Source: Nigrospora sphaerica
Lineage: Eukaryota > Ascomycota > Sordariomycetes > Amphisphaeriales > Apiosporaceae
DNA length: 64,000 nt
Assembly (NCBI GenBank): GCA_018287875.1
Contig: JAGVVL010000002.1
Location: 434,001-498,000, forward strand
Direction of reading: 5' to 3'
The position numbers were made by a program, and so were the translations under genes. The notes below the pieces were generated by a model. The model had not been told where the DNA came from, did not search any database, and worked only from the letters and a program-made list of their open reading frames with translations. How positions within the stretch are numbered: position 1 is the stretch's first letter; the number at the start of each line of letters is the position of its first letter. Shown piece after piece: positions 4,350-20,799 of the stretch.

Positions 4350-5598
4350 GCCGCAGGAGGAGGCTGCTTGGTGGTTCTTCACTTGTCTTGTGGGCAGCGG
4401 TATTGCTTCAGCACCTGGTTTTTCTTTTTTTCTTTGGGCGCGGATCTATCAAAAGCCTGTAGTTATAATCCGCCATCACCTTCCTGCTATCAAATCCCCT
4501 TTCTAACGGGTTGGTCTTGGCAACGCCTCCCACCTATACATAATGAAAAATGTTTGGTTTTAATCAAGGTTTATGCCGAATCCCGGCCTTTTCTGCAGAT
4601 CGAGGTTTATTATACCGGGATTCCGTAGCATAATATCTTGAATGAATAGTTCTTACACAACTATCCAAGCCGTAACGTTGCACCTCCGTCACTCCCTAGT
4701 GCTTTCTGCTGTTCAAGACCAATCACCGACGGCCCAGTTTCTTCCCTCCCTGTCACCTCGGGGGCCGGTTAGGGAGGCAACCACCCCCCCTCCCTCGCCA
4801 TCTCGCAGCCATGTTGCCCACAGAAAGTCAAAACACACGTGAGTTGCCGTCCCTCTGTGTAGCCCGTTTATGTACTCGACCCGTGGCGACCACAGCTCTC
4901 TGCTCTCACTCTCGCGCCATGTCCCTTTTCTTCGAGGTTGATACGGGACAGACTCGAGGGGAAGGCAACATGGGGGCCGAGGGAGAATGGGGGGAGTGAA
5001 CATCTCTCTGCAAGTTTGCGACGTCGTAAAAAGCCCTCCCGCTCGAATACCATGACTAAGCCCTTGCATAGACCGACCCACGTCACCCACGCCGGCACGG
5101 AGTAGGAATGGCGCCACCCGCGCCTTCATCCTCATTATGTGGAATCTGATTCCAGGTTTGAAGCGTTCCCGTGACGTCCAGAATCTACTGTTTGTCAGTA
5201 AGATTCTTGAAACTCTACTTATTAATAACCTTCTACAACGCTTCCCCCCCCGGGCCCTGGTACATCTAAAGACCCTAGTTACAGATAACAGATCCACCCA
5301 TCACAACCTGCAGTCGGCTAGACAACATGACACCATCCTTAACCGAAACGGTCGGTCCCGCCTTACCTGCAGTGGCGTGACACCCCCTCCCTCCTGGCCC
5401 TGGTATTTGCACGAAAGGACCACGGGATATGCGAGGCCCTCCCCCCCTCCCCTCCCCTTGCCTCCAGGTTCCACGGCGGTGATGATGTGTCGTCCCTCCT
5501 TCTTGCCATTAGCTCAGGGTTTCCCTCTAATTTATCTAGCGGACCGACGGTTCTGTTCTACCCCGCGCAAATGGTCGGCGGGAGGCCCCCTTTTCTAC
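4350..5598. other. Intergenic: convergent 3' ends of PKS and regulator
   Basis: The PKS and the regulator are transcribed toward each other, so this interval should hold two 3' UTRs and terminators. I see no gene in it; the open frames are short and lack motifs or plausible splice patterns. Confidence 0.6.
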
Positions 5599-10473: not shown

Positions 10474-11480
10474 AAGGTGGCAACGAGTGGTAGGAAGAGA
10501 TGAGGCTGGGTGCTGGCTCAGAAGGCACCCCGTCATCTCCTTGCCTCCCTTTGCCCGTTACCAAGCTTGCACGACATCATCCCTTGGGTCGAGATAGCAG
10601 TGTGGTACTGTCAACACATGCAATGCCGTTCTTTTGAGCCAAAAACTATAGATTGTACTTTAGTATTTAATAGCCCTAGCCGAGCGTACTAGCCCTAGCC
10701 GAGCGTACCAACCCGAATGTTGGACTCGCATCAAACATAACATTTGGTCACGAGTTTCTCAGATGCCTTAACCTAGCTCATCCTATAAAAGCTAGTGAAA
10801 CTTGGAGGTCGCGATGTTAGTATTTCGCTGCATATACAATATCTAGGTGAGTGAATGCATGATTGATGAACGTTTGATTGCGGGTATGGCTAGCATTCCT
10901 CACACGAGAGTCCTGCTTATCGGATTGCAGTACAAAGTTATTCGCGATCAGGCCCGGCTGCGAGTGTTTATACAGCCATAACGACTATCATAGGCATCTC
11001 GAGGTAAGTACTGGATGACGGGGGCGGTTGTGGTGGTGCTAATAGAAGGACGGCGGGACGGTGGGCGCTTAGCGTATGGAACCTAGCCAGATGTTCTAGG
11101 ATAGAAGTTTCTTTACTTCGAGTTAAGCCAGCTTGAGATTTAAGCCATTTCAAAGCATCTGAACGTAGCTTGAGCGGCGCCGCCGCGGGGACGGGATAGG
11201 GGAGCCCAAGAGGCCAGGCATAAGTGAGACTATTGGCCACCTGACATCTCTTTTGATGGGTGCTTGGGTGCGGTTAAATAACCACCTAGTCAAACGTCTC
11301 GTCATCATCAATATCAGTCTTCTGGTCCAGTCGGCCCAACGCTCCACAATCAGTGCCCGGATTTTTTAAAGTTGTCGAATCCCAAAGTGTCACTGTAGCA
11401 GCCCAGAGAGGAACTCCTCATCCCGCATATCCGAGAAGGTACGATCGCGATCGCAATTCAGGAGCCAACCATATACATCT
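10474..11480. other. Intergenic stretch between exporter and Copia element
   Basis: This stretch is more AT-rich than the flanking genes. It contains a small tandem duplication but no supportable gene. A reverse-strand open frame at 10968-11240 shows no recognisable domain. Confidence 0.55.
10671..10708. repeat. Perfect 19-bp tandem duplication
   Basis: Two adjacent identical 19-bp units (TAGCCCTAGCCGAGCGTAC) lie downstream of the exporter. No function is evident. Confidence 0.85.
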
Positions 11481-11670
11481 TGTCGCGAGACGAGCCTATC
11501 GTCACTAACAAGCCTACCAGGTCACGTGACTTTATGTAAGCTCAAGAGCCTAGCCTGTCAGGCGGGCTACGGAGCTACTATATCTACCTCTGGATCCTCA
11601 GATAGTTTTCCTTTGTTTTTCCTAATAGAACAACTAGAACCTCGTTCCTCACGTCCCCTGAAGTGCGACA
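11481..11670 (+). repeat. 5' LTR of Copia element
   Basis: The LTR is 190 bp with TG...CA ends. It contains the 10-bp palindrome GTCACGTGAC (11521-11530), which includes an E-box CACGTG, and a TATA-like CTACTATATC, both plausible promoter elements for the genomic transcript. Confidence 0.97.
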
Positions 11671-11684
11671 GTTATGAGCCCGGC
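11671..11684 (+). other. Primer-binding site: complementary to initiator tRNA-Met anticodon arm
   Basis: The sequence GTTATGAGCCCGGC follows the LTR with no gap. Its reverse complement, GCCGGGCTCATAAC, matches the anticodon stem-loop of eukaryotic initiator tRNA-Met (CAT anticodon in GGGCTCATAAC). It does not match a tRNA 3' end. This is the half-tRNA priming known for Drosophila copia and yeast Ty5. Confidence 0.8.
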
Positions 11685-11820: not shown

Positions 11821-14262
11821 ATGTCCGACCAAACGCTCACGAAGGTCCTGCTCGTCAGCAAGTACGACTGGCCTGATTGGTACAACTCGCTTCGGAGAGG
11901 AGCTGAAGATCGACGTATCTGGGACTACATCAACCCAGACGCGGAGCCTAACAGCTACATCAACAATCCTCCAGAAAGGCCAGTCTACCAGGAGCCTCAA
12001 GGAGCGAATTCAGACTCTCCGACTGCACTGGACGCAGCAGAGAGGCGCTTTCAACGAGAACTGCGAACCTTTGCTGCCGACACAAGCACTTGGAACACTC
12101 TTAACAACCATTATCTGTTTCTGACCGAATGGGTCAAGCAGACGGTCAAAAAGGAGTATCTCACGGCAGCTTACGGACGCATCGAAGCCCAGGAGAAGAA
12201 ACTCGAGCTTGTCAGAATAGCCACCGAAGCCACCGCTGCTATTGAGAGCGGAACGACCACGACTGTCGAGCGAAACAAGACCAACACGCTCCAGAAGCTG
12301 CTTAAGGAACTAAGGAAGCAGTATCAGCCGGCTGACTCCTCTGTCCTCTCCGCAATACAAGAACGCTACCAGCGAGTCCTGACAAGCGCGTCAAAGGGGG
12401 GAATCTCTCCAGAAGCCTGGCACGCCGAGTTCACCGCTATTCACGCTCTCGCCGATGCCCATGGGATCCCTGAAGTGCAAGGCGCACTTGCAATAAAGGC
12501 GTTTCTGAAGGCAGTTCGTGAGCGCATGGCTCCACAATGGGCTCAGATTCAATTGGACGATATCCTCAAAGCCGAAGTGACGGGAAAGGAACTACTCACG
12601 CTAACTCAGCTGAGCTCCATCTTTCTTGAGCAGGTGACTTCTTCTAGCACGCTAGACAGACGTCACAAGTCATTCGCCACGTTAGGAGATCAAGGAGAAG
12701 CCCATCAGACCACCTCACAGGCGAGAAAGCGGAAGAATGGCACTCTACACGCCTGTCCCTGCCTGCCTCGCGGAGAGAAGCACCAATGGGAACCCAGGGT
12801 GTGCAGACGTCTCCAGTTTGCCCTGAATGGCTCTGCGGACCTCCTACCTAACGGAGTCAAGTTCCGAGGCCTCACCAACGCTAAGGCAAAGGAAATACGA
12901 GAAAGAGCCATGTCCAATCACTGGGGCACACTCCGCAAGCTCATCGAGGAGAAGAAGCCAGGTGAGGGAGCAGGACAGACCACCGCTGAACCGTTCGTCG
13001 CGGTTACTATCGTCCCTGAGACCTTTCCCATGCCTGCCAACATTAACCTGGCTGTTACCGCTCAAATCGGCCCGCACAACCTCTCACAGTCGACTGTCGT
13101 TGACAGTTGCGGTTCCTCGCACATTGTCAACTCCATGGAGCTACTTGAGGAGGGAAGCTTCACTCCTGCGCGTCCTGGATCAGTTGTGGAGGCAGGGTCG
13201 TCGGCCTTTTCCATCAAGGGATCAGGCACAAGGGTCCTGAGGGGCTTACTGAACAGTCCCAAGGGTGGCAAGGTAGACCTGGTGCTACATGACGTGCAAC
13301 TAGTCGAAGGATTCCACACCAACATCATCTCAGAGGCGAAACTCCTGAAAGCAGGGATCTGGTACCATGGCAGAGAGTGCTCTCTACGCTATGGTGAGCA
13401 CGGAGAAGGCGTCCTGGTGCGAAAGTTGGAAAGAGTAGGCAACCTTACGTTCTTCGAATACAAGCCTCTTTACTCCTATTTCTCTTTCGCCTCTCAAGTC
13501 ATCTCCGCACCGGCTGGGACAGTGAGAGCGTTTCCCGCCATACGAAAAGCACCCACGGGTGAAGCTCAACAAACAAGACCAAGGATACGGATGGATTCTG
13601 AGGCACTCTGGCATGCTAGGGCTGGACACCTAGGCCGAGATGCGCTCAGAAAGCTCGCTGAGAGAGGACAGAATGTCGCTTTCAAAGGCGAGACACTCAC
13701 GGAGTGTGAGACTTGCAGACTTACGGACGCCAGACGACTTATCAGTCGAATTCCAGTAGAAAGAGCCCCAAGACCATTCTTCAGGGTGCTCTGGGACCTA
13801 TTTGACTATCCACGTGGGTATGATGGGTCTCGCTGGTTAATAGTCCTGAAGGATGATTACAGCGGAAAGCTTTGGTCGTTCACTTCGCCTACCAAGTCAC
13901 ACACGCAGCTATTTCGAATACTGCGAAGCTTCGAAAGGCATGTCCTCAGGCGCTACAACCTTCACATCGCAATCCTCAAGCACGACGGGGAGAAGGGGGT
14001 GATAGCAATCCAGGGCATGACCGAATATGAGCGTTGGGCAGAGGAGGAAGGAATCGAGCTGGAGATATCCCCTCCGAACACCCATGAGCCGAATGGGGGC
14101 TCAGAAAGAGCAGGTCAGGAGGTCATCAATAGGGCACTGAAGCTAAGGAGCACGCCAAGCTACCCGAGGCGCTCTGGCCGGAAGCAACGAGAGCGGCAAC
14201 CAAGCTTATCAACATGTGCCCATCACAGGCGCAACGCTTCCGAAGCCCAGATGAGGTGCTAG
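11821..14262 (+). CDS. Copia gag-protease-integrase polyprotein, 5' part
   Basis: This reads as an 813-codon frame. The N-terminal capsid region (residues about 1-290) is followed by a knuckle-like CPCLPRGEKHQWEPRVC near residue 310, a protease-like VVDSCGSSHIVN near residue 430, and the GAG-pre-integrase zinc segment (H...H then CETCRL) near residue 600. The integrase core then shows its first Asp in the DLFDYPRG/KDDYSGK region and the later Asp and Glu in KHDGEKG and NGGSERAGQ. The frame leaves integrase homology around 14145-14155 and runs to a spurious stop. Integrase homology continues one frame lower in the next feature, so one base appears to have been lost here. Whether translation can cross this point is not shown. 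Confidence 0.9.
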   Translation: MSDQTLTKVLLVSKYDWPDWYNSLRRGAEDRRIWDYINPDAEPNSYINNPPERPVYQEPQGANSDSPTALDAAERRFQRELRTFAADTSTWNTLNNHYLFLTEWVKQTVKKEYLTAAYGRIEAQEKKLELVRIATEATAAIESGTTTTVERNKTNTLQKLLKELRKQYQPADSSVLSAIQERYQRVLTSASKGGISPEAWHAEFTAIHALADAHGIPEVQGALAIKAFLKAVRERMAPQWAQIQLDDILKAEVTGKELLTLTQLSSIFLEQVTSSSTLDRRHKSFATLGDQGEAHQTTSQARKRKNGTLHACPCLPRGEKHQWEPRVCRRLQFALNGSADLLPNGVKFRGLTNAKAKEIRERAMSNHWGTLRKLIEEKKPGEGAGQTTAEPFVAVTIVPETFPMPANINLAVTAQIGPHNLSQSTVVDSCGSSHIVNSMELLEEGSFTPARPGSVVEAGSSAFSIKGSGTRVLRGLLNSPKGGKVDLVLHDVQLVEGFHTNIISEAKLLKAGIWYHGRECSLRYGEHGEGVLVRKLERVGNLTFFEYKPLYSYFSFASQVISAPAGTVRAFPAIRKAPTGEAQQTRPRIRMDSEALWHARAGHLGRDALRKLAERGQNVAFKGETLTECETCRLTDARRLISRIPVERAPRPFFRVLWDLFDYPRGYDGSRWLIVLKDDYSGKLWSFTSPTKSHTQLFRILRSFERHVLRRYNLHIAILKHDGEKGVIAIQGMTEYERWAEEEGIELEISPPNTHEPNGGSERAGQEVINRALKLRSTPSYPRRSGRKQRERQPSLSTCAHHRRNASEAQMRC

Positions 14263-17201
14263 ACTCCTGGTTTTTGCAAAATGAGGAGCGGTACAGCCCA
14301 GCTCAGGTGCGTGACATCCACGCAGACCTGCGGCCAGACTGGTCTGGGATATACGTGTTCGGCTGCAAAGCGTATGCGTTACATCAGAGACGAGCGGCTG
14401 GGCTGGACCGACGAGCGTTCAAAGTTCAACCAAGGGCTCAGATCGGTTATCTAGTAGGTTACGCCGCTAGGAACATCTACAGGATCTGGTTGCCTAAGCA
14501 CGGCAGAGTCATTCAGACGCGAGACGTCACCTTCGACGAGACGCAGTTCTATTATAGCCGAGACTCGCAACGTCTTGAGCCAGAGGCGATAGAATATCTG
14601 GAAGTTCAGCCCTCAGAGATCCCATTGAGCGAAGCAGGCTTTACAAACGAGTCGATGCCGCTCTGGGAAGCTCTTGAGGAGCTAGACGACGCCATAAGTC
14701 CTGAAACACGTCCCGACTCCACTCGAGAGGCTCATCTCGTGGACTCGGGGGTGCCGGACACACCCGAGGGACCAGTCGACAAGAACTCGGGGGTGAGACG
14801 CGCACCTGAAGACATCCAAGGAATTCATGGGCCTGGGATGTCGGATGCACAGACAGGACTTCTTACGCCTGGTCGCCAGTCAAGTGAGCCGGAGGGCGAA
14901 AATAGCATGCTTTACCTTACGGAACACCTCATAAGCGAACCACGGCATAGATCCAGTGATCACCAGCCAGTTGCAACTGCTGGAGAGTCAGGGTCAGAAA
15001 ACACGGGACGAGCAGCAGAGCGGCCACTCTCAGGCTCACCCGAAGTGTCAGAACCAGCAGGCATCTCGGCGCGCAGGCCGACGAGCTCAACTGGGACACC
15101 AGACCGGAGCATAGCTCCTCAGAGACTGCATGGTCAGTCTCCAGACCAGAGGATAGCTCCTCAGAGACTGCAAGGTCAGACTCCAGAGACGGATCTACAA
15201 GAAGAGATCCATGACGAAATTAATGTTCGGCCTCTTGACGAAGAGACGGACCAGAGACCGCCTGAGAGCCGCAGAGCAACTAGGGGTAGGAGATCCCGAG
15301 CCTCACAGCCGACGCAACCAGCGAGGAGGAGCTCGAGACTCCAGAGAGAACAGGAAACGGATCAGCAGTCGTTCCTTTCGCTGCTATTCGGGCTCAAGGA
15401 GATAACCCAACAAGAGACTGATCATCTCGATGCTCTCCTAAGCACCTGTCTCGCTAAGGAGGCCACGAACCAAGATGAGGACCTCCTGAGAACCATTCAT
15501 GCGCGAATATTCGCGTCAACACGGTCTCAAAGAGCACTCAAGGAGCTAGACGAACCAAGCGGACCGCAGGGCTTCGCTCCTCCACCCAAGTTCTGGCGTG
15601 AATTAGCTACTCACCCCAGAGGAGAGCAGTTCAGACAAGCTACCAAGCTCGAGATCGACAAGGCAGTGGCTATGAAAGCCTGGGAGGAGGTTCCAGACGC
15701 TCCCTCGCTCTTCAAGCTGCCCTTAAAATGGGTTTTCACCGATAAATTCGATGAGAACAACAAGCACCTTCGCTGCAAAGCAAGGATCTGCGTGCGAGGA
15801 GATAAGCAGATTGTCACTTCACTAGCCAGCACGTACGCTGCTACGCTAGCCTCGAAGTCCTTCAGGATTATCATGGCCCTAGCAGCCTACTTCGACTGGG
15901 AAGTCAGACAGTTCGACGTTGTCAACGCATTCCTGAACGCACTTTTCGCAGAAAACTCCGAACCAATCTTCGTGGAACATCCACCAGGCTATGAAAGGCC
16001 AGGATACTGTCTCAAGCTGAACAGAGCACTCTATGGACTCAAGGAATCACCTCAACTATGGTTCCGAGACTTCTCGAGCTCACTTCGAAGACTTGGGCTT
16101 GTCAGCACACCTGAGGAACCCTGCCTGTTCTATAACGAGAAACGCACGATCTTCGTTGTGTTCTATGTGGACGATTTCCTAGTCTGTTACAGCCCACAGG
16201 CTAAAGAGGAGGCACTCGCCTTAATCGAAGCCCTCAAGGGGATCTATGAGCTGAAGGACCAAGGATCTGTGGGCTACTACCTAGGGGTCAGGGTCACTCG
16301 TAAGAGAAACGAGGGATTACTCTGGCTCTCGCATGACAGCTATCTTGAGAAGATAGCGAGGCGTTTTGACCTCCAGGACGACAAGTCACCAGCGACGCCA
16401 CTCCCGTCCATAGCCTTGGAAGCTTATCAAGACACTGCTCCAGCTCACCGAGTTAAAGCTTACCAGGAACGCGTTGGGAGCATCCTCTACAGCGCTATTA
16501 TGATCAGGCCGGACCTTTCCTTCGCCTGCTCACAGCTATCTCGCTTCCTCACGAATCCAAGTCAAGAGCATCTCGAGGCAGCTGACTGGTGCATACGGTA
16601 CGCGTTTAGCACTCGATACGTGTCGATACGCTACGGAATGAAGAAACCAGTGCAGTCTATCCCACAAGCGCTAGTTATCTCAACGGATGCTTCATTTGCA
16701 GACGATCCGGAGACGCGTCGTTCTTCCCAGGGATACCTCATCCAGCTATTCGGAGGACCAGTAGCCTGGAAGGCCAGCCGACAAGCGACAGTTACCACTT
16801 CCACCACGGAGGCAGAGCTTCTGGCGCTCAGCGAGACAGCCAAGGAGACCATGGCACTTCAGAGGCTATTCAGAGACATCCAACTCGTCCTAGACGCACC
16901 TTTCAGCATCTCCTGCGATAACCAGCAGACGATACGCCTTATCATCGGCAATCAGGAGAGGGTATCTACGAAGCTAAGGCACGTTGATATACATAACCTC
17001 TGGCTCCGCCAAGAATACTCCAGGGGCTCATTTCAATTAATTTATCTCGCCACAAAGGACATGCCAGCCGACGGACTAACGAAGAATCTACCACGGGCGA
17101 AATTTGAGCAATTAAGAGCGACTCTCAACCTTCAGGACATCCGACAAGCGATCGAGGAAGCAGAGAATGGAAAACAACGCATATGGATTAAAGAATCTTA
17201 A
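14214..17201 (+). CDS. Copia integrase C-terminus, reverse transcriptase and RNase H (pol 3' part)
   Basis: The homology really begins near 14150, upstream of the first in-frame Met, so this is the continuation of the polyprotein and not an independent gene. It contains the integrase C-terminal region, a long Ser/Thr/Glu-rich linker with a 39-bp tandem repeat (around 15105-15190, IAPQRL units), the reverse transcriptase (RCKARICVRGD, LYGLKESPQLW, and the catalytic YVDDFLV) and Copia RNase H (STDASFADD, SQGYLIQLFGG, TTSTTEAELLAL). It ends at a normal stop and is otherwise intact over 995 codons, consistent with recent activity. Confidence 0.92.
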   Translation: MCPSQAQRFRSPDEVLDSWFLQNEERYSPAQVRDIHADLRPDWSGIYVFGCKAYALHQRRAAGLDRRAFKVQPRAQIGYLVGYAARNIYRIWLPKHGRVIQTRDVTFDETQFYYSRDSQRLEPEAIEYLEVQPSEIPLSEAGFTNESMPLWEALEELDDAISPETRPDSTREAHLVDSGVPDTPEGPVDKNSGVRRAPEDIQGIHGPGMSDAQTGLLTPGRQSSEPEGENSMLYLTEHLISEPRHRSSDHQPVATAGESGSENTGRAAERPLSGSPEVSEPAGISARRPTSSTGTPDRSIAPQRLHGQSPDQRIAPQRLQGQTPETDLQEEIHDEINVRPLDEETDQRPPESRRATRGRRSRASQPTQPARRSSRLQREQETDQQSFLSLLFGLKEITQQETDHLDALLSTCLAKEATNQDEDLLRTIHARIFASTRSQRALKELDEPSGPQGFAPPPKFWRELATHPRGEQFRQATKLEIDKAVAMKAWEEVPDAPSLFKLPLKWVFTDKFDENNKHLRCKARICVRGDKQIVTSLASTYAATLASKSFRIIMALAAYFDWEVRQFDVVNAFLNALFAENSEPIFVEHPPGYERPGYCLKLNRALYGLKESPQLWFRDFSSSLRRLGLVSTPEEPCLFYNEKRTIFVVFYVDDFLVCYSPQAKEEALALIEALKGIYELKDQGSVGYYLGVRVTRKRNEGLLWLSHDSYLEKIARRFDLQDDKSPATPLPSIALEAYQDTAPAHRVKAYQERVGSILYSAIMIRPDLSFACSQLSRFLTNPSQEHLEAADWCIRYAFSTRYVSIRYGMKKPVQSIPQALVISTDASFADDPETRRSSQGYLIQLFGGPVAWKASRQATVTTSTTEAELLALSETAKETMALQRLFRDIQLVLDAPFSISCDNQQTIRLIIGNQERVSTKLRHVDIHNLWLRQEYSRGSFQLIYLATKDMPADGLTKNLPRAKFEQLRATLNLQDIRQAIEEAENGKQRIWIKES

Positions 17202-17458: not shown

Positions 17459-18236
17459 CTACTTTCTCCGCTCGCCACGCCTCTCAGGCAGCTTGGTACG
17501 CGCACTAGGGCCAGGCGTAGGCGTCTCGGGCGCTGGAGAGGACTCAGAAGGCGGAGGGGAAGAGAGCGGCGAAGAGCTGTCGGACGCAGGAGCGCTGCGA
17601 GGCTCAGGAGAGCCCACGTCACCTCCAAGAAGCGTGTGGTCATCGGGAAGGCCATGCAGGTCGCGCAAGCCCTTCACGGTTGCTCTCATGCGACGAATCT
17701 GAGGCTTCAAGCCTGTCAGGACAGCCAGCAGGAGAATCAGCAGCAAAAAGGTACTCACAACGTTCTGGACCGGGCGGTTCAGCTCACGCAACAGGGAACG
17801 AGCAGCCAGGGCAAGCCACTCGGGCACCTCCTCGCACTGATGGTTGTTTAAAGTGCACTCGTAGCACTTCAAGGCACCTGGCAAGCGAGTATCGTGGCAA
17901 TGGCCACGAGAATGACGCTCGGCACCACGCAAACAGGGGAGACAGGGTGTGAAGCGCAGGTCACCTTTCTGGCGCCGCAGAATAGCCATCTCAGCGCGAG
18001 ACGGGCTGGCGGCCTTGCGAGCCTTGTCCTTGGCCCTGGCGCGCTTGATGAGCTCTCTGGCGCGCTTGAGCTCCTCGGGGTCTATGTCGGACTCGCTGTC
18101 CTCGTGATCGCGGCCAGGCTTGCCGCTGCCCTGGAAAGGCGCACGCCCGCCACTGCCCTGGCCAACCGCTATGAAGCGAAAAGTTAGCAAAATGAGCACC
18201 AGAGAACAGGCGAGGTGCGAACAAACCGGCAGACAT
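17459..18236 (-). CDS. Antisense gene inside Copia element; Cys-rich, one hydrophobic helix
   Basis: I do not recognise this protein. It lies between pol and the 3' LTR on the opposite strand. The spliced model is exon 1 18236-18227 and exon 2 18168-17459, giving 239 aa. The 58-nt intron has a GTTTGT donor, a strong GCTAAC branch point and a TTCATAG acceptor. The unspliced alternative starts at 18325 and gives 288 aa in the same frame. Visible features in order: an acidic then basic coiled-coil-like stretch (ELKRARELIKRARAKDKARK), a Cys/His cluster (CLPCLRG, GHCHD, KCYECTLNNHQC), a hydrophobic helix (STFLLLILLLAVLTGL), and a Pro/Ser-rich tail. A TATA box lies upstream on the same strand. An envelope-like or regulatory role is possible but unproven. 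Confidence 0.6.
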
Positions 18237-18364
18237 TGCTGATGATACTGGAAAATGGCGAGAAGAAGCTGGATGGATGGCCTGAAAGGCGAGAGAAGAA
18301 GTGCAGAAGACAGTGGGAAGCGCAATGATGATGATAAGGGGAAGAAGAAGCCCGGGGAGGACTT

Positions 18365-18372
18365 CCTTTATA
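18365..18372 (-). promoter_or_regulatory. TATA box of the antisense gene
   Basis: TATAAAGG on the reverse strand lies about 130 bp upstream of the spliced-model start codon (18236) and about 40 bp upstream of the alternative start at 18325. It points away from the retrotransposon's sense transcription. Confidence 0.5.
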
Positions 18373-18812: not shown

Positions 18813-18821
18813 GAGGGGGTG
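18813..18821 (+). other. Polypurine tract of Copia element
   Basis: The sequence GAGGGGGTG immediately precedes the 3' LTR. This is the expected position for the plus-strand primer, although one T interrupts the purines. Confidence 0.65.
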
Positions 18822-19011
18822 TGTCGCGAGACGAGCCTATCGTCACTAACAAGCCTACCAGGTCACGTGACTTTATGTAAGCTCAAGAGCCTAGCCTGTC
18901 AGGCGGGCTACGGAGCTACTATATCTACCTCTGGATCCTCAGATAGTTTTCCTTTGTTTTTCCTAATAGAACAACTAGAACCTCGTTCCTCACGTCCCCT
19001 GAAGTGCGACA
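18822..19011 (+). repeat. 3' LTR of Copia element
   Basis: This is a second 190-bp copy. I found no difference from the 5' LTR when reading them side by side. Confidence 0.97.
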
Positions 19012-19128
19012 CATCTTTTACCGATTTTATTTTCTAAATTTAATTATAAGCCCACCTTAACGACATGTTTTACTGTGTTTTTCCTACATATCAGTGTAAT
19101 CAGGATGTTACATCTTGACGTACAATTA

Positions 19129-19169: not shown

Positions 19170-20799
19170 GAGTTTGAGATGTCTTCGAAAAATGAAGCAC
19201 CAGCACCAAAACAACGATGTCTCGACAACCAAACAAGGAACTGAGTTCGTTTTTTGATCTATGAGACAGTGATGCAGTCCTTGGGCTCAGAATCAGACTC
19301 TTCAGAGACATCGAGCTCAACTATATATCGTTTTATTGCCCGACCTTTGCCTTTAGTATCGCTAGAGGACGCCAGCTCCTCCTTCACTTTACGCACATCT
19401 GCAATCCTCACGAACGCTTCCTATGTAGTCTCCCTGACTTTTCGACGTTTCTGGGGCCTCTGGCGCTCTAATGCAGCCGCTAATTGGTCTCTCTCTTCGC
19501 TCAGCGTAGAGATTTTCACGATTGCTTCGTCGAGAGCCTTGCCAAGCTTCGACTGGAAGGACCTGAACATTGGAGATCGGTATACAGGGTCTATACTGCG
19601 CAGGTCCTTGGCGATAATATTGATCTGGCGGGAACTCTTTGGCGTGGAGATATCGATACCACTCATTATCGCTAGCCCTAGCGCCTCTAGCACCTCTGGC
19701 GTCCTCCAGAGGCTGGAGTCTGGCTGGTCACGTAGATGCTGGCGCGCCAGCCTGCTATTGAGGGCTTTGGAGCGGTCCCTTGGGAAGATACCGGTCGCGC
19801 GCCAGCCAGCAGCGATATTTAAAGCCGTGAAGGCTTCCAAACGAGCGCCCATCCAAGCCTCCAGGAACTCCGGCTTCTTTGGTGTCATGGTGAGGCTATT
19901 GCGGCATACAGCGCGTAGATGGTCGCGATACTTCCTCTTCAGAACGCTAAAGGGGCCCAAATCGAGAGGCTGGAGGACCTGTGAGCAGTGCGCTGGTAGG
20001 AAATTAATCCAGACGTTGTTCTCCAAGCATCGTAGTATAAATAGATCGTCAATATGGCTATTATGGCCATCGAGGATAAGGTGTCGCCACTGGCTGGGGT
20101 TTTCAGGCGCTGTAAACGGTAGAAACAGTTCCTCTAGCCACTGTAAAGCAATTGCCTTGCTGGTCCAACCGTTTGGACTGCTGGCAAACATCCATTTGTG
20201 ATACTCCTTGCGGAGTTGTTGGTCTCCAAACCATTGCTGTTGAATAGAGGCCCCAGCGAAGATCACGGCCGGCGGTAAAGCTCTGCCGTCTCCAGAGATA
20301 CACTCTAAAGTAGTTGTCTACTCTCTGTTACCAGGCTCCATAGTATAGATCTTCTGGAGCTCAGATAGGCCGAATACGATATAGTTATCTAACTAGCCAA
20401 TATGGGCTCCAACTTCGTCCACGTTATATGTGTGCTCTGGAGGAACAAGGCCTGCGTCTCCTTAATTAAGGCGATCGAAGAACTCCTGGATATTATCACG
20501 GGAGGCTCTATTAGCGCGTTTAAAGTCGAGCGGCGTAGATTGTATGGTCTTTAATAGCGGCCAGCGCTTAAGAAACTTCGTATGCCAGTGTTTGCCGACC
20601 ACTCCAGAGTGGCCTGAGTTAATGAGTAGTCTCTAGGCGAACCAGCGAAATCGTGAGAACGGAGGAGCCCAGCTAAGTCTGCCCTGTGTAAGTATCTAGT
20701 CTGCTAAACCTTTCTCCAGCGTTGGTGAAAGGCTCTGGCGATGGCTGTGAGCAAGGTATCTAGGGTTGACACCGTCGATTCGGCGCTTAAGGGTGTTTC

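What the first reader, a model, noticed from the sequence alone, without database searches (positions are those of the whole stretch)
17459..18372. Spliced antisense gene carried inside a Copia retrotransposon
Between pol and the 3' LTR, where retroviruses place envelope genes, the reverse strand has its own TATAAAGG, a start codon, an intron with a near-ideal GCTAAC branch point and acceptor, and a frame of about 239 codons. The product combines a Cys/His cluster, one strong hydrophobic helix and a Pro/Ser-rich tail. An antisense intron would survive reverse transcription of the sense genomic RNA, so an intron here fits element-borne expression. I know of no named protein like it. A role in membrane association or in controlling the element is an inference.
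Basis: partly seen in the sequence, partly recalled or inferred. Interest (0 to 1): 0.8.

Follow-up and report, generated by a model that had tools for sequence, protein, structure and literature searches.

The report
Spliced antisense gene in fungal Copia
A jumping gene of what looks like a fungus carries an extra, intron-containing gene written on its opposite strand; the gene is kept intact by natural selection in several related jumping-gene families, and the 'membrane anchor' first seen in its product is most likely just an unrecognised intron.

Summary
The antisense gene is real. It lies between pol and the 3' LTR of a complete, young Ty1/Copia element (identical 190-nt LTRs, target-site duplication CATCT) in a 51.6-Mb genome that looks fungal. 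The genome holds 16 close copies, this one included. Diverged Copia families (pol about 70-80% identical) carry recognisable relatives: 32 of 66 merged reverse-transcriptase places, 32 of 32 on the strand opposite pol. The exons are under strong purifying selection (dN 0.002, dS 0.104 against the diverged copy L013; pol dN 0.011, dS 0.093). Two relative families have four exons. Intron 1 is shared with the window. A second intron is absent from the window family, precisely, as if lost. Spliced, the product is 219 aa with no membrane helix: a basic region, a conserved Cys/His cluster and a Pro/Ser-rich tail. No Pfam family matches. Antisense genes in this slot are known (plant Grande, RIRE2, Retand; fungal Ty3 brtn), so the kind is known; a conserved, spliced protein family in Copia seems new. 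Splicing is inferred from sequence; no RNA was seen. A nuclear regulatory or accessory role is inference.

The parts
11481..11670 (+). 5' LTR (190 nt, TG...CA)
   Evidence: direct repeat, 100% identical to 18822-19011; ends read
11476..11480 (.). target-site duplication CATCT, left
11672..11681 (+). putative primer binding site TTATGAGCCC, one base after the LTR; its likeness to the complement of the initiator-tRNA anticodon arm is recalled, not computed
   Evidence: 1 match in the window, 0.12 expected
11821..14262 (+). gag-integrase ORF, 813 aa (gag_pre-integrs and Pol_BBD just below their curated cut-offs, weak rve)
14214..17201 (+). pol ORF, 995 aa (SH3_retrovirus, RVT_2; no separate Pfam hit for RNase H)
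18367..18372 (-). TATAAA, possible core promoter of the antisense gene, 136 nt upstream of its ATG; a similar box at -147 in L013, none within 330 nt in the B1 and B2 copies looked at
18227..18236 (-). antisense exon 1 (ATGTCTGCCG, codes MSA and one base)
   Evidence: the tiny phase-1 first exon is shared with families B1 and B2
18169..18226 (-). intron 1, 58 nt, GTTTGT...GCTAAC...TAG
   Evidence: same position in B1 (51 nt) and B2 (49 nt)
17759..18168 (-). antisense exon 2: basic region and Cys/His cluster C-x2-C...HCH...C-x2-C...C; spans the place where relatives have intron 2 (absent here)
17459..17698 (-). last antisense exon incl. stop TAG: conserved RATV-like stretch and Pro/Ser-rich tail
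18813..18819 (+). GAGGGGG before the 3' LTR (putative polypurine tract), also next to the LTR-like sequence in gene-less family C
18822..19011 (+). 3' LTR
19012..19016 (.). target-site duplication CATCT, right

Best explanation
The region is an antisense transcription unit that belongs to a lineage of fungal Ty1/Copia elements. Host RNA polymerase II would start between the 3' LTR and the gene and transcribe towards pol; the spliceosome would remove two introns (three in sister families); the product is a soluble protein of about 220-280 aa with a basic region, a Cys/His cluster that probably binds zinc, and a low-complexity tail. The introns persist because the genomic RNA that is copied into DNA is the other strand and does not present these splice sites. 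Most likely role: a trans-acting accessory protein of the element, probably nuclear and nucleic-acid-binding, that controls expression of the element or helps its cDNA or RNA, in the way proposed for the antisense proteins of Grande and Retand and known for HBZ. Shown here by sequence: place, strand, exon structure by homology, purifying selection, presence in several Copia families, absence from one sister family. Inferred: transcription, splicing, zinc binding, nuclear location, role.
For: Element. 16 close copies and distant relatives. Of 66 merged RVT_2 places (86 matches), 32 have the gene 3' of RT, 32 of 32 on the opposite strand, 31 of them at 1.0-1.56 kb and one at 6.2 kb (gene places); one further RT place (L069) shows B1-like exons 3-4, also antisense. 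Spliced proteins of three families align over most of their length (76/202, 89/203 and 123/259 identical) with introns 1 and 3 at matching places and phases. Selection: window against L013, exons 17/660 differences, codon positions 3, 0, 14; 16 silent, 1 replacement (binomial 5.6e-9 if 74% of random changes replace, an assumed figure); dN 0.0020, dS 0.104; introns 8/118; flanks 40/139 and 36/178. Twelve non-RIP copies: variable exon sites 4, 2, 23 by codon position, p 5e-7 (L013 is one of the twelve). Family B2, L037 against L039: exon 2 dN 0.019, dS 0.137; exon 4 0.051, 0.300. The four sense ORFs of the region do not recur convincingly in B1 or B2 (best E 0.009). Spliced forms have no membrane helix; R+K 39 of 219 in the window's. 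Ten database relatives in all, none with a precomputed Pfam domain.
Against: No RNA or protein evidence. Family C, with the RT-RNase H part 81-84% identical in three members (68% in L076, which has many stops), lacks the whole module, so the gene is not indispensable. No TATA-like box within 330 nt upstream in the four B1 and B2 copies looked at. The strongest selection figure rests on one diverged copy, L013, and gene conversion could have lowered its divergence. Three of the four sense ORFs of the region also stay open in L050, the element of L013, at 93-95% identity. Half of the close copies are broken. The function rests on analogy; the AlphaFold model is poor (mean pLDDT 61.7, pTM 0.30; only a basic helix at residues 30-53 is fairly confident), and no fold search was run with it.
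Confidence: 0.6

Rival explanations
1. Antisense RNA, not protein, is the functional product: a spliced antisense transcript silences or tunes the element through double-stranded RNA, and the frame is incidental.
For: Spliced antisense transcripts on Ty1/Copia and Ty3 elements were seen in the fungus Blumeria hordei by short and long reads and judged to encode no meaningful peptides; 8 lncRNAs (6 of them labelled TE-antisense) were cloned and predicted introns verified in 2, one of these 2 labelled intergenic (passages of PMC10648671).
Against: Changes concentrate at third codon positions and almost none alter the protein; proteins align across families at 38-47% identity through two shared introns. 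RNA and protein roles can coexist.
Confidence: 0.12
2. Envelope-like membrane protein: the stretch at 17758-17699 is translated, giving a 239-aa protein with one transmembrane helix.
For: The stretch is 60 nt, a multiple of three, without stops in the 12 non-RIP copies, and hydrophobic in all of them; hydropathy 2.42.
Against: GTGAGT, CTGAC and CAG signals; an intron sits here in B1 (53 nt) and B2 (49 nt), where reading through shifts the frame away from the conserved C-terminal part; in L013 0 silent and 4 replacement changes here against 16 and 1 in the exons.
Confidence: 0.05
3. Regulated intron retention: both forms are made in the window family, a soluble 219-aa and a membrane-anchored 239-aa protein.
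For: The intron is a multiple of three and stop-free in the 12 non-RIP copies. A 60-nt stop-free putative intron is also readable in the antisense gene of a Ty3 element of the same genome (L063).
Against: Not possible in B1 and B2 (53 and 49 nt); a stop-free multiple of three among short pyrimidine-rich introns is not rare by chance; the stretch gathers replacements.
Confidence: 0.08
4. A host gene captured once and carried passively (transduction).
For: The gene has spliceosomal introns and its own upstream region, as a host gene would.
Against: No clear non-element copy: 32 of 40 merged gene places lie next to Copia RT, and the other 8 all carry stops or are truncated (one of them, L045, has a pol fragment beside it). 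Maintained in several families under selection. An ancient capture remains possible as origin.
Confidence: 0.15

Closest known systems
brtn of Boty-like Ty3/Gypsy elements, Botrytis cinerea (Zhao et al. 2011, Virology; paper not held, seen only as cited in PMC7264820, PMC4227169 and PMC8365987)
   Same: Fungal LTR retrotransposon with an additional antisense gene, which PMC7264820 lists among antisense ORFs between pol and the 3' LTR.
   Different: Ty3, not Ty1/Copia. Whether brtn has introns or is homologous could not be tested; no brtn sequence was available.
Antisense additional ORFs of plant LTR retrotransposons: Grande gene23, RIRE2, Retand (TRP28), PvRetro13 (passages of PMC7264820 and PMC11963269)
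   Same: Same slot and strand, present in most copies, unknown function; the Grande product is reported nuclear with its own promoter. The review PMC7264820 itself calls for a look at antisense and spliced transcripts.
   Different: Plant elements, Ty3/Gypsy in the case of Retand; no introns mentioned for them ('intron' has 0 occurrences in both papers); no Pfam match such as TRP28 in the protein here.
HBZ of HTLV-1 (passages of PMC2386809)
   Same: Spliced minus-strand gene of a retroelement with a very short first coding exon joined to a large second one.
   Different: HBZ-SI starts in the 3' LTR and encodes a basic-zipper protein. Here the ATG lies 586 nt from the LTR, no bZIP domain is found, and the introns lie within the module.
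Spliced antisense lncRNAs of Blumeria hordei Ty1/Copia and Ty3 elements (passages of PMC10648671)
   Same: Spliced antisense transcription of fungal Copia elements, seen experimentally.
   Different: Judged to encode no meaningful peptides; here a conserved protein is encoded.
DUF3716 (PF12511), found here as an antisense gene of Ty3 elements in the same genome
   Same: Cys-rich protein, antisense just 3' of pol, with a probable intron.
   Different: Not detectably homologous: no Pfam hit, profile comparison probability 1.8%.

Membership tests
Antisense additional ORF between pol and 3' LTR (aORF-3R) | Lies between pol and the 3' LTR | tested here: met
   pol ends 17201, gene 17459-18236, LTR from 18822
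Antisense additional ORF between pol and 3' LTR (aORF-3R) | Opposite strand to gag-pol | tested here: met
   32 of 32 gene places next to RT
Antisense additional ORF between pol and 3' LTR (aORF-3R) | Conserved in most copies and related families, not a one-off transduction | tested here: met
   but absent from sister family C and from about half of the Copia RT places
Antisense additional ORF between pol and 3' LTR (aORF-3R) | Antisense transcription, own promoter | not testable with these tools
   no RNA data; TATAAA at -136 only suggestive
brtn (Boty) | Carried by a Ty3/Gypsy element | tested here: not met
   RVT_2 (Copia-type RT)
brtn (Boty) | Protein homology to BRTN | not testable with these tools
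   Zhao et al. 2011 not held; no sequence available
DUF3716 (PF12511) | Match to the Pfam model over its cut-off | tested here: not met
   no DUF3716 hit listed at E <= 10; hhalign probability 1.8%
Envelope-like protein | Transmembrane helix in the mature protein | tested here: not met
   the helix is most likely intron 3; the spliced forms of A, B1 and B2 have no segment above 0.94 (Kyte-Doolittle, 19 residues); conditional on splicing, which was not observed
Envelope-like protein | Sense orientation | tested here: not met
   antisense
HBZ-type antisense bZIP regulator | bZIP domain | tested here: not met
   no Pfam bZIP
HBZ-type antisense bZIP regulator | Spliced antisense transcript from the 3' LTR | not testable with these tools
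   no RNA data

The most novel reading that the evidence does not exclude
Fungal LTR retrotransposons of both superfamilies (Copia and Ty3) in one genome each maintain their own spliced antisense Cys-rich gene in the envelope slot, as HBZ-like self-control genes. The exact loss of intron 2 in the window family would then record that a spliced antisense mRNA was itself reverse-transcribed and recombined back into the element. The stop-free, multiple-of-three intron 3 would allow a second, membrane-anchored isoform.
Probability: 0.12. Interest if true: 0.85.

Novelty: new variant of a known kind. Interest (0 to 1): 0.62.

Why it matters
Antisense genes of LTR retrotransposons are known but poorly understood, and spliced antisense transcripts of fungal elements have been called non-coding. 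A family of conserved proteins encoded by spliced antisense exons of Copia elements, with gene-bearing and naturally gene-less sister families in the same genome, makes the role of such genes directly testable. It also suggests that some antisense 'lncRNAs' of transposons deserve a second look across splice junctions, and it shows how an unrecognised intron can imitate a transmembrane helix.

Tried and rejected
Membrane or envelope protein: rejected because the helix sits on a homologous intron. DUF3716 membership: the Cys spacing looked similar by eye (recalled layout), but Pfam and hhalign gave no support. IMG/VR viral contigs: 23 stretches matched a pattern, none encodes a relative. Solved structures: only E 0.39 (Pex12) and 0.62 (Utp30), taken as chance. 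The database search scored only the 7993 candidates sharing most words in its last round. The order of families A, B and C in the RT tree is weak (supports 73 or less), so 'gene lost in C' and 'gained after C split' are not resolved. The loss of intron 2 in the window family is parsimonious given B1, B2 and the reading of database relatives P0002, P0003, P0004, P0006 and P0010 into what could be a donor, but the DNA of those relatives was not seen. The host species was not identified; that it is a fungus is inferred from gene content and RIP-like mutations.

Rows left out of counts: one search used all 86 RT matches and 44 gene entries typed; weak isolated matches (C9:2911510, C1:6176624, C9:823664, C11:42536, C11:42279, C33:2472573, C13:3092846) and pieces within places already entered were not typed. 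One search used all 52 matches and 50 distinct of the 150 integrase places (51 typed, one twice), chosen by contig and nearness, so its count is a lower bound; two of its 20 gene places share one integrase. The genome search itself warns that its counts of repeats are lower bounds. P0007 and L044 were left out of alignment A2. The 12 'non-RIP' copies leave out L011, L012, L014 and L016.

Full report
What was checked. The window holds a complete Ty1/Copia element: identical LTRs at 11481-11670 and 18822-19011, target-site duplication CATCT, a gag-integrase ORF at 11821-14262 and a pol ORF at 14214-17201 with RVT_2 and SH3 domains. [quoted passage not shown]

Copies. The window's own assembly (51.6 Mb, 33 contigs, unnamed) has 16 places with the close family, counting the window's own (L017 is a second piece of L015). 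Eight of the 16 keep start, splice sites and frame; three have 1-2-nt exon deletions (L005, L008, L009), one is truncated (L015), and four (L011, L012, L014, L016) carry internal stops with almost only transitions (40 of 40, 41 of 41, 61 of 62 and 106 of 111 exon changes), enriched at CpA and CpG, the sign of repeat-induced point mutation (recalled). In one search L016 is 83% identical, the others 92% or more.

Distant relatives and strand. A protein search of the genome gave 56 matches, many at 33-49% identity. Of 12 such loci read with flanks (L036-L047), 10 have pol sequence on the opposite strand beside the gene, 69-81% identical in the better matches and 44-56% in two poor ones; L043 and L044 showed none. 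Of 66 merged Copia RT places (86 matches), 32 have the antisense gene downstream: 31 within 1.0-1.56 kb, one at 6.2 kb, 32 of 32 on the opposite strand. L069, counted there as lacking it, shows B1-like exons 3-4. Eight of 40 merged gene places have no RT match nearby; all 8 carry stops or are truncated. Merged places include decayed pieces, so they are not counts of intact elements.

Exon structure. In families B1 (L040) and B2 (L039) the homologous gene has four exons with introns of 51, 52 and 53 nt and of 49, 52 and 49 nt, each GT...AG with a CTGAC or TTGAC before the acceptor; the joined exons give 282- and 267-aa proteins, checked letter by letter against the DNA. Intron 1 sits after a tiny first exon in phase 1 in all three families. 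Intron 2 follows 'HNHT' or 'YNHT' in B1 and B2 and is absent, exactly and in phase, from the window family ('NNHQ-C'); several database relatives read into what could be an intron-2 donor at this place, which points to loss in the window family. Intron 3 corresponds to the window's 17758-17699. There the DNA reads GTGAGT...CTGAC...CAG, is 60 nt long and stop-free, and gives the hydrophobic stretch when translated. In B1 and B2 it is 53 or 49 nt and cannot be read through in frame. Spliced, the window protein is 219 aa and has no hydrophobic segment (maximum 0.25 against 2.42 unspliced).

Selection. Against L013, in an element with pol about 96% identical (L050), exons differ at 17 of 660 sites, by codon position 3, 0 and 14; introns at 8 of 118; the flanks at 40 of 139 and 36 of 178, roughly evenly over phases. 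Sixteen exon changes are silent and 1 replaces a residue; intron 3 read as codons has 0 silent and 4 replacing changes (Fisher p 8e-4). NG86 dN 0.0020 and dS 0.104 for the antisense exons; dN 0.0111 and dS 0.0929 for 686 codons of pol in the same comparison. Among 12 non-RIP copies variable sites fall 4, 2, 23. In B2, L037 against L039, exon 2 gives 0.019 and 0.137, exon 4 0.051 and 0.300; L037 has a 1-nt deletion in exon 3 relative to L039 (84 against 85 nt). So the frame is under purifying selection as a protein, in more than one family. Caveats: the best figure rests on one diverged copy, gene conversion could have lowered its divergence, and three of the four sense ORFs of the region also stay open in L050 at 93-95% identity (the fourth has a stop), though none recurs convincingly in B1 or B2.

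Gene-less sisters. Family C (L065, L070, L072, L076; RT-RNase H part 81-84% identical, 68% in the stop-rich L076) ends pol, continues about 70 bp with the same purine-rich stretch, and enters a sequence whose last 100 bp match the window's LTR at 78-79%; the module is absent. The other LTR of family C was not looked at. L071, close to the window in RT (93%), breaks off into unrelated sequence after pol. Family D (RT 55-60%) and more distant Copia elements showed no relative of the gene in the stretches read, about 1-3.9 kb 3' of RT. The RT tree joins B1 and B2 (100) but does not settle the order of A, B and C (73 or less). The gene is therefore optional over evolutionary time although constrained where present.

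Protein. Across 11 sequences the invariant columns include C75, C78, R87-G88-H89-C90-H91 and C101 of the window exon-2 piece, with C104 nearly invariant; a further Cys after the intron-2 junction is shared by A, B1 and B2. No Pfam family passes its cut-off for the proteins or members tested. A database of about 5.8 billion proteins gave only P0001-P0010, unnamed proteins of contigs of 546-2012 bases. AlphaFold on 11 sequences: mean pLDDT 61.7, pTM 0.30.

A second antisense system. DUF3716 is also repeated in this genome. In L063 (C13:655500-664500) a Ty3-type pol (RVT_1, RNase H, Integrase_H2C2) is followed on the opposite strand by a DUF3716 ORF at 4411-5382. Of 31 merged places of this gene (52 matches), 20 lie antisense within 4 kb 3' of an Integrase_H2C2 match and none on the same strand, using 50 of the 150 integrase places. 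A GTAAGT...CTGAC...CAG intron is readable in L079 and a 60-nt stop-free counterpart in L063 (by eye). It is not detectably related to the Copia gene. This may correspond to brtn of Boty, which could not be tested.

Comparison with print. Read: passages of PMC7264820, PMC4227169, PMC5987419, PMC8365987, PMC11963269, PMC10648671 and PMC2386809. Antisense ORFs between pol and the 3' LTR are an established kind, including brtn in a fungal Ty3 element; Retand carries antisense TRP28 ORFs in 97% of clusters; Grande's product is reported nuclear. Spliced antisense transcripts of fungal Copia and Ty3 elements were seen in Blumeria and called non-coding. In the searches made no title or abstract start among the papers listed describes a spliced protein-coding antisense gene in a Copia element; several of these listings were capped (for example 15 of 968, 25 of 49), and most subscription papers are not in that library.

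Verdict. Estimates: real protein-coding antisense gene 0.95; spliced at intron 1 0.93; hydrophobic stretch is an intron 0.9; nuclear or nucleic-acid-binding accessory role 0.45. The last is inference from composition, place and analogy.

Noticed in passing
L063:4411-5382 (-) and L063:519-4229 (+); also L054, L055, L056, L079: Ty3 elements of the same genome carry an unrelated antisense DUF3716 gene directly 3' of pol, with a probable intron; 20 of 31 merged places lie antisense near an integrase match (lower bound).
   Followed up: partly
L065, L070, L072, L076: A sister Copia family lacks the whole antisense module: pol is followed after about 70 bp by LTR-like sequence, a natural gene-less counterpart.
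   Followed up: partly
window 17759-18168 against L040:1833-1884: Exact, in-phase absence of intron 2 in the window family, as if a spliced antisense transcript had been copied back into DNA.
   Followed up: partly
window 19421-20266 (-): DDE_1 (PF03184) transposase piece just right of the element's 3' LTR.
   Followed up: no
L011, L012, L014, L016: RIP-like copies (C to T and G to A, mostly at CpA and CpG) beside nearly identical unmutated copies.
   Followed up: partly
window 14214-14262: The gag-integrase and pol ORFs overlap in different frames; whether frameshifting or a mutation joins them was not examined.
   Followed up: no
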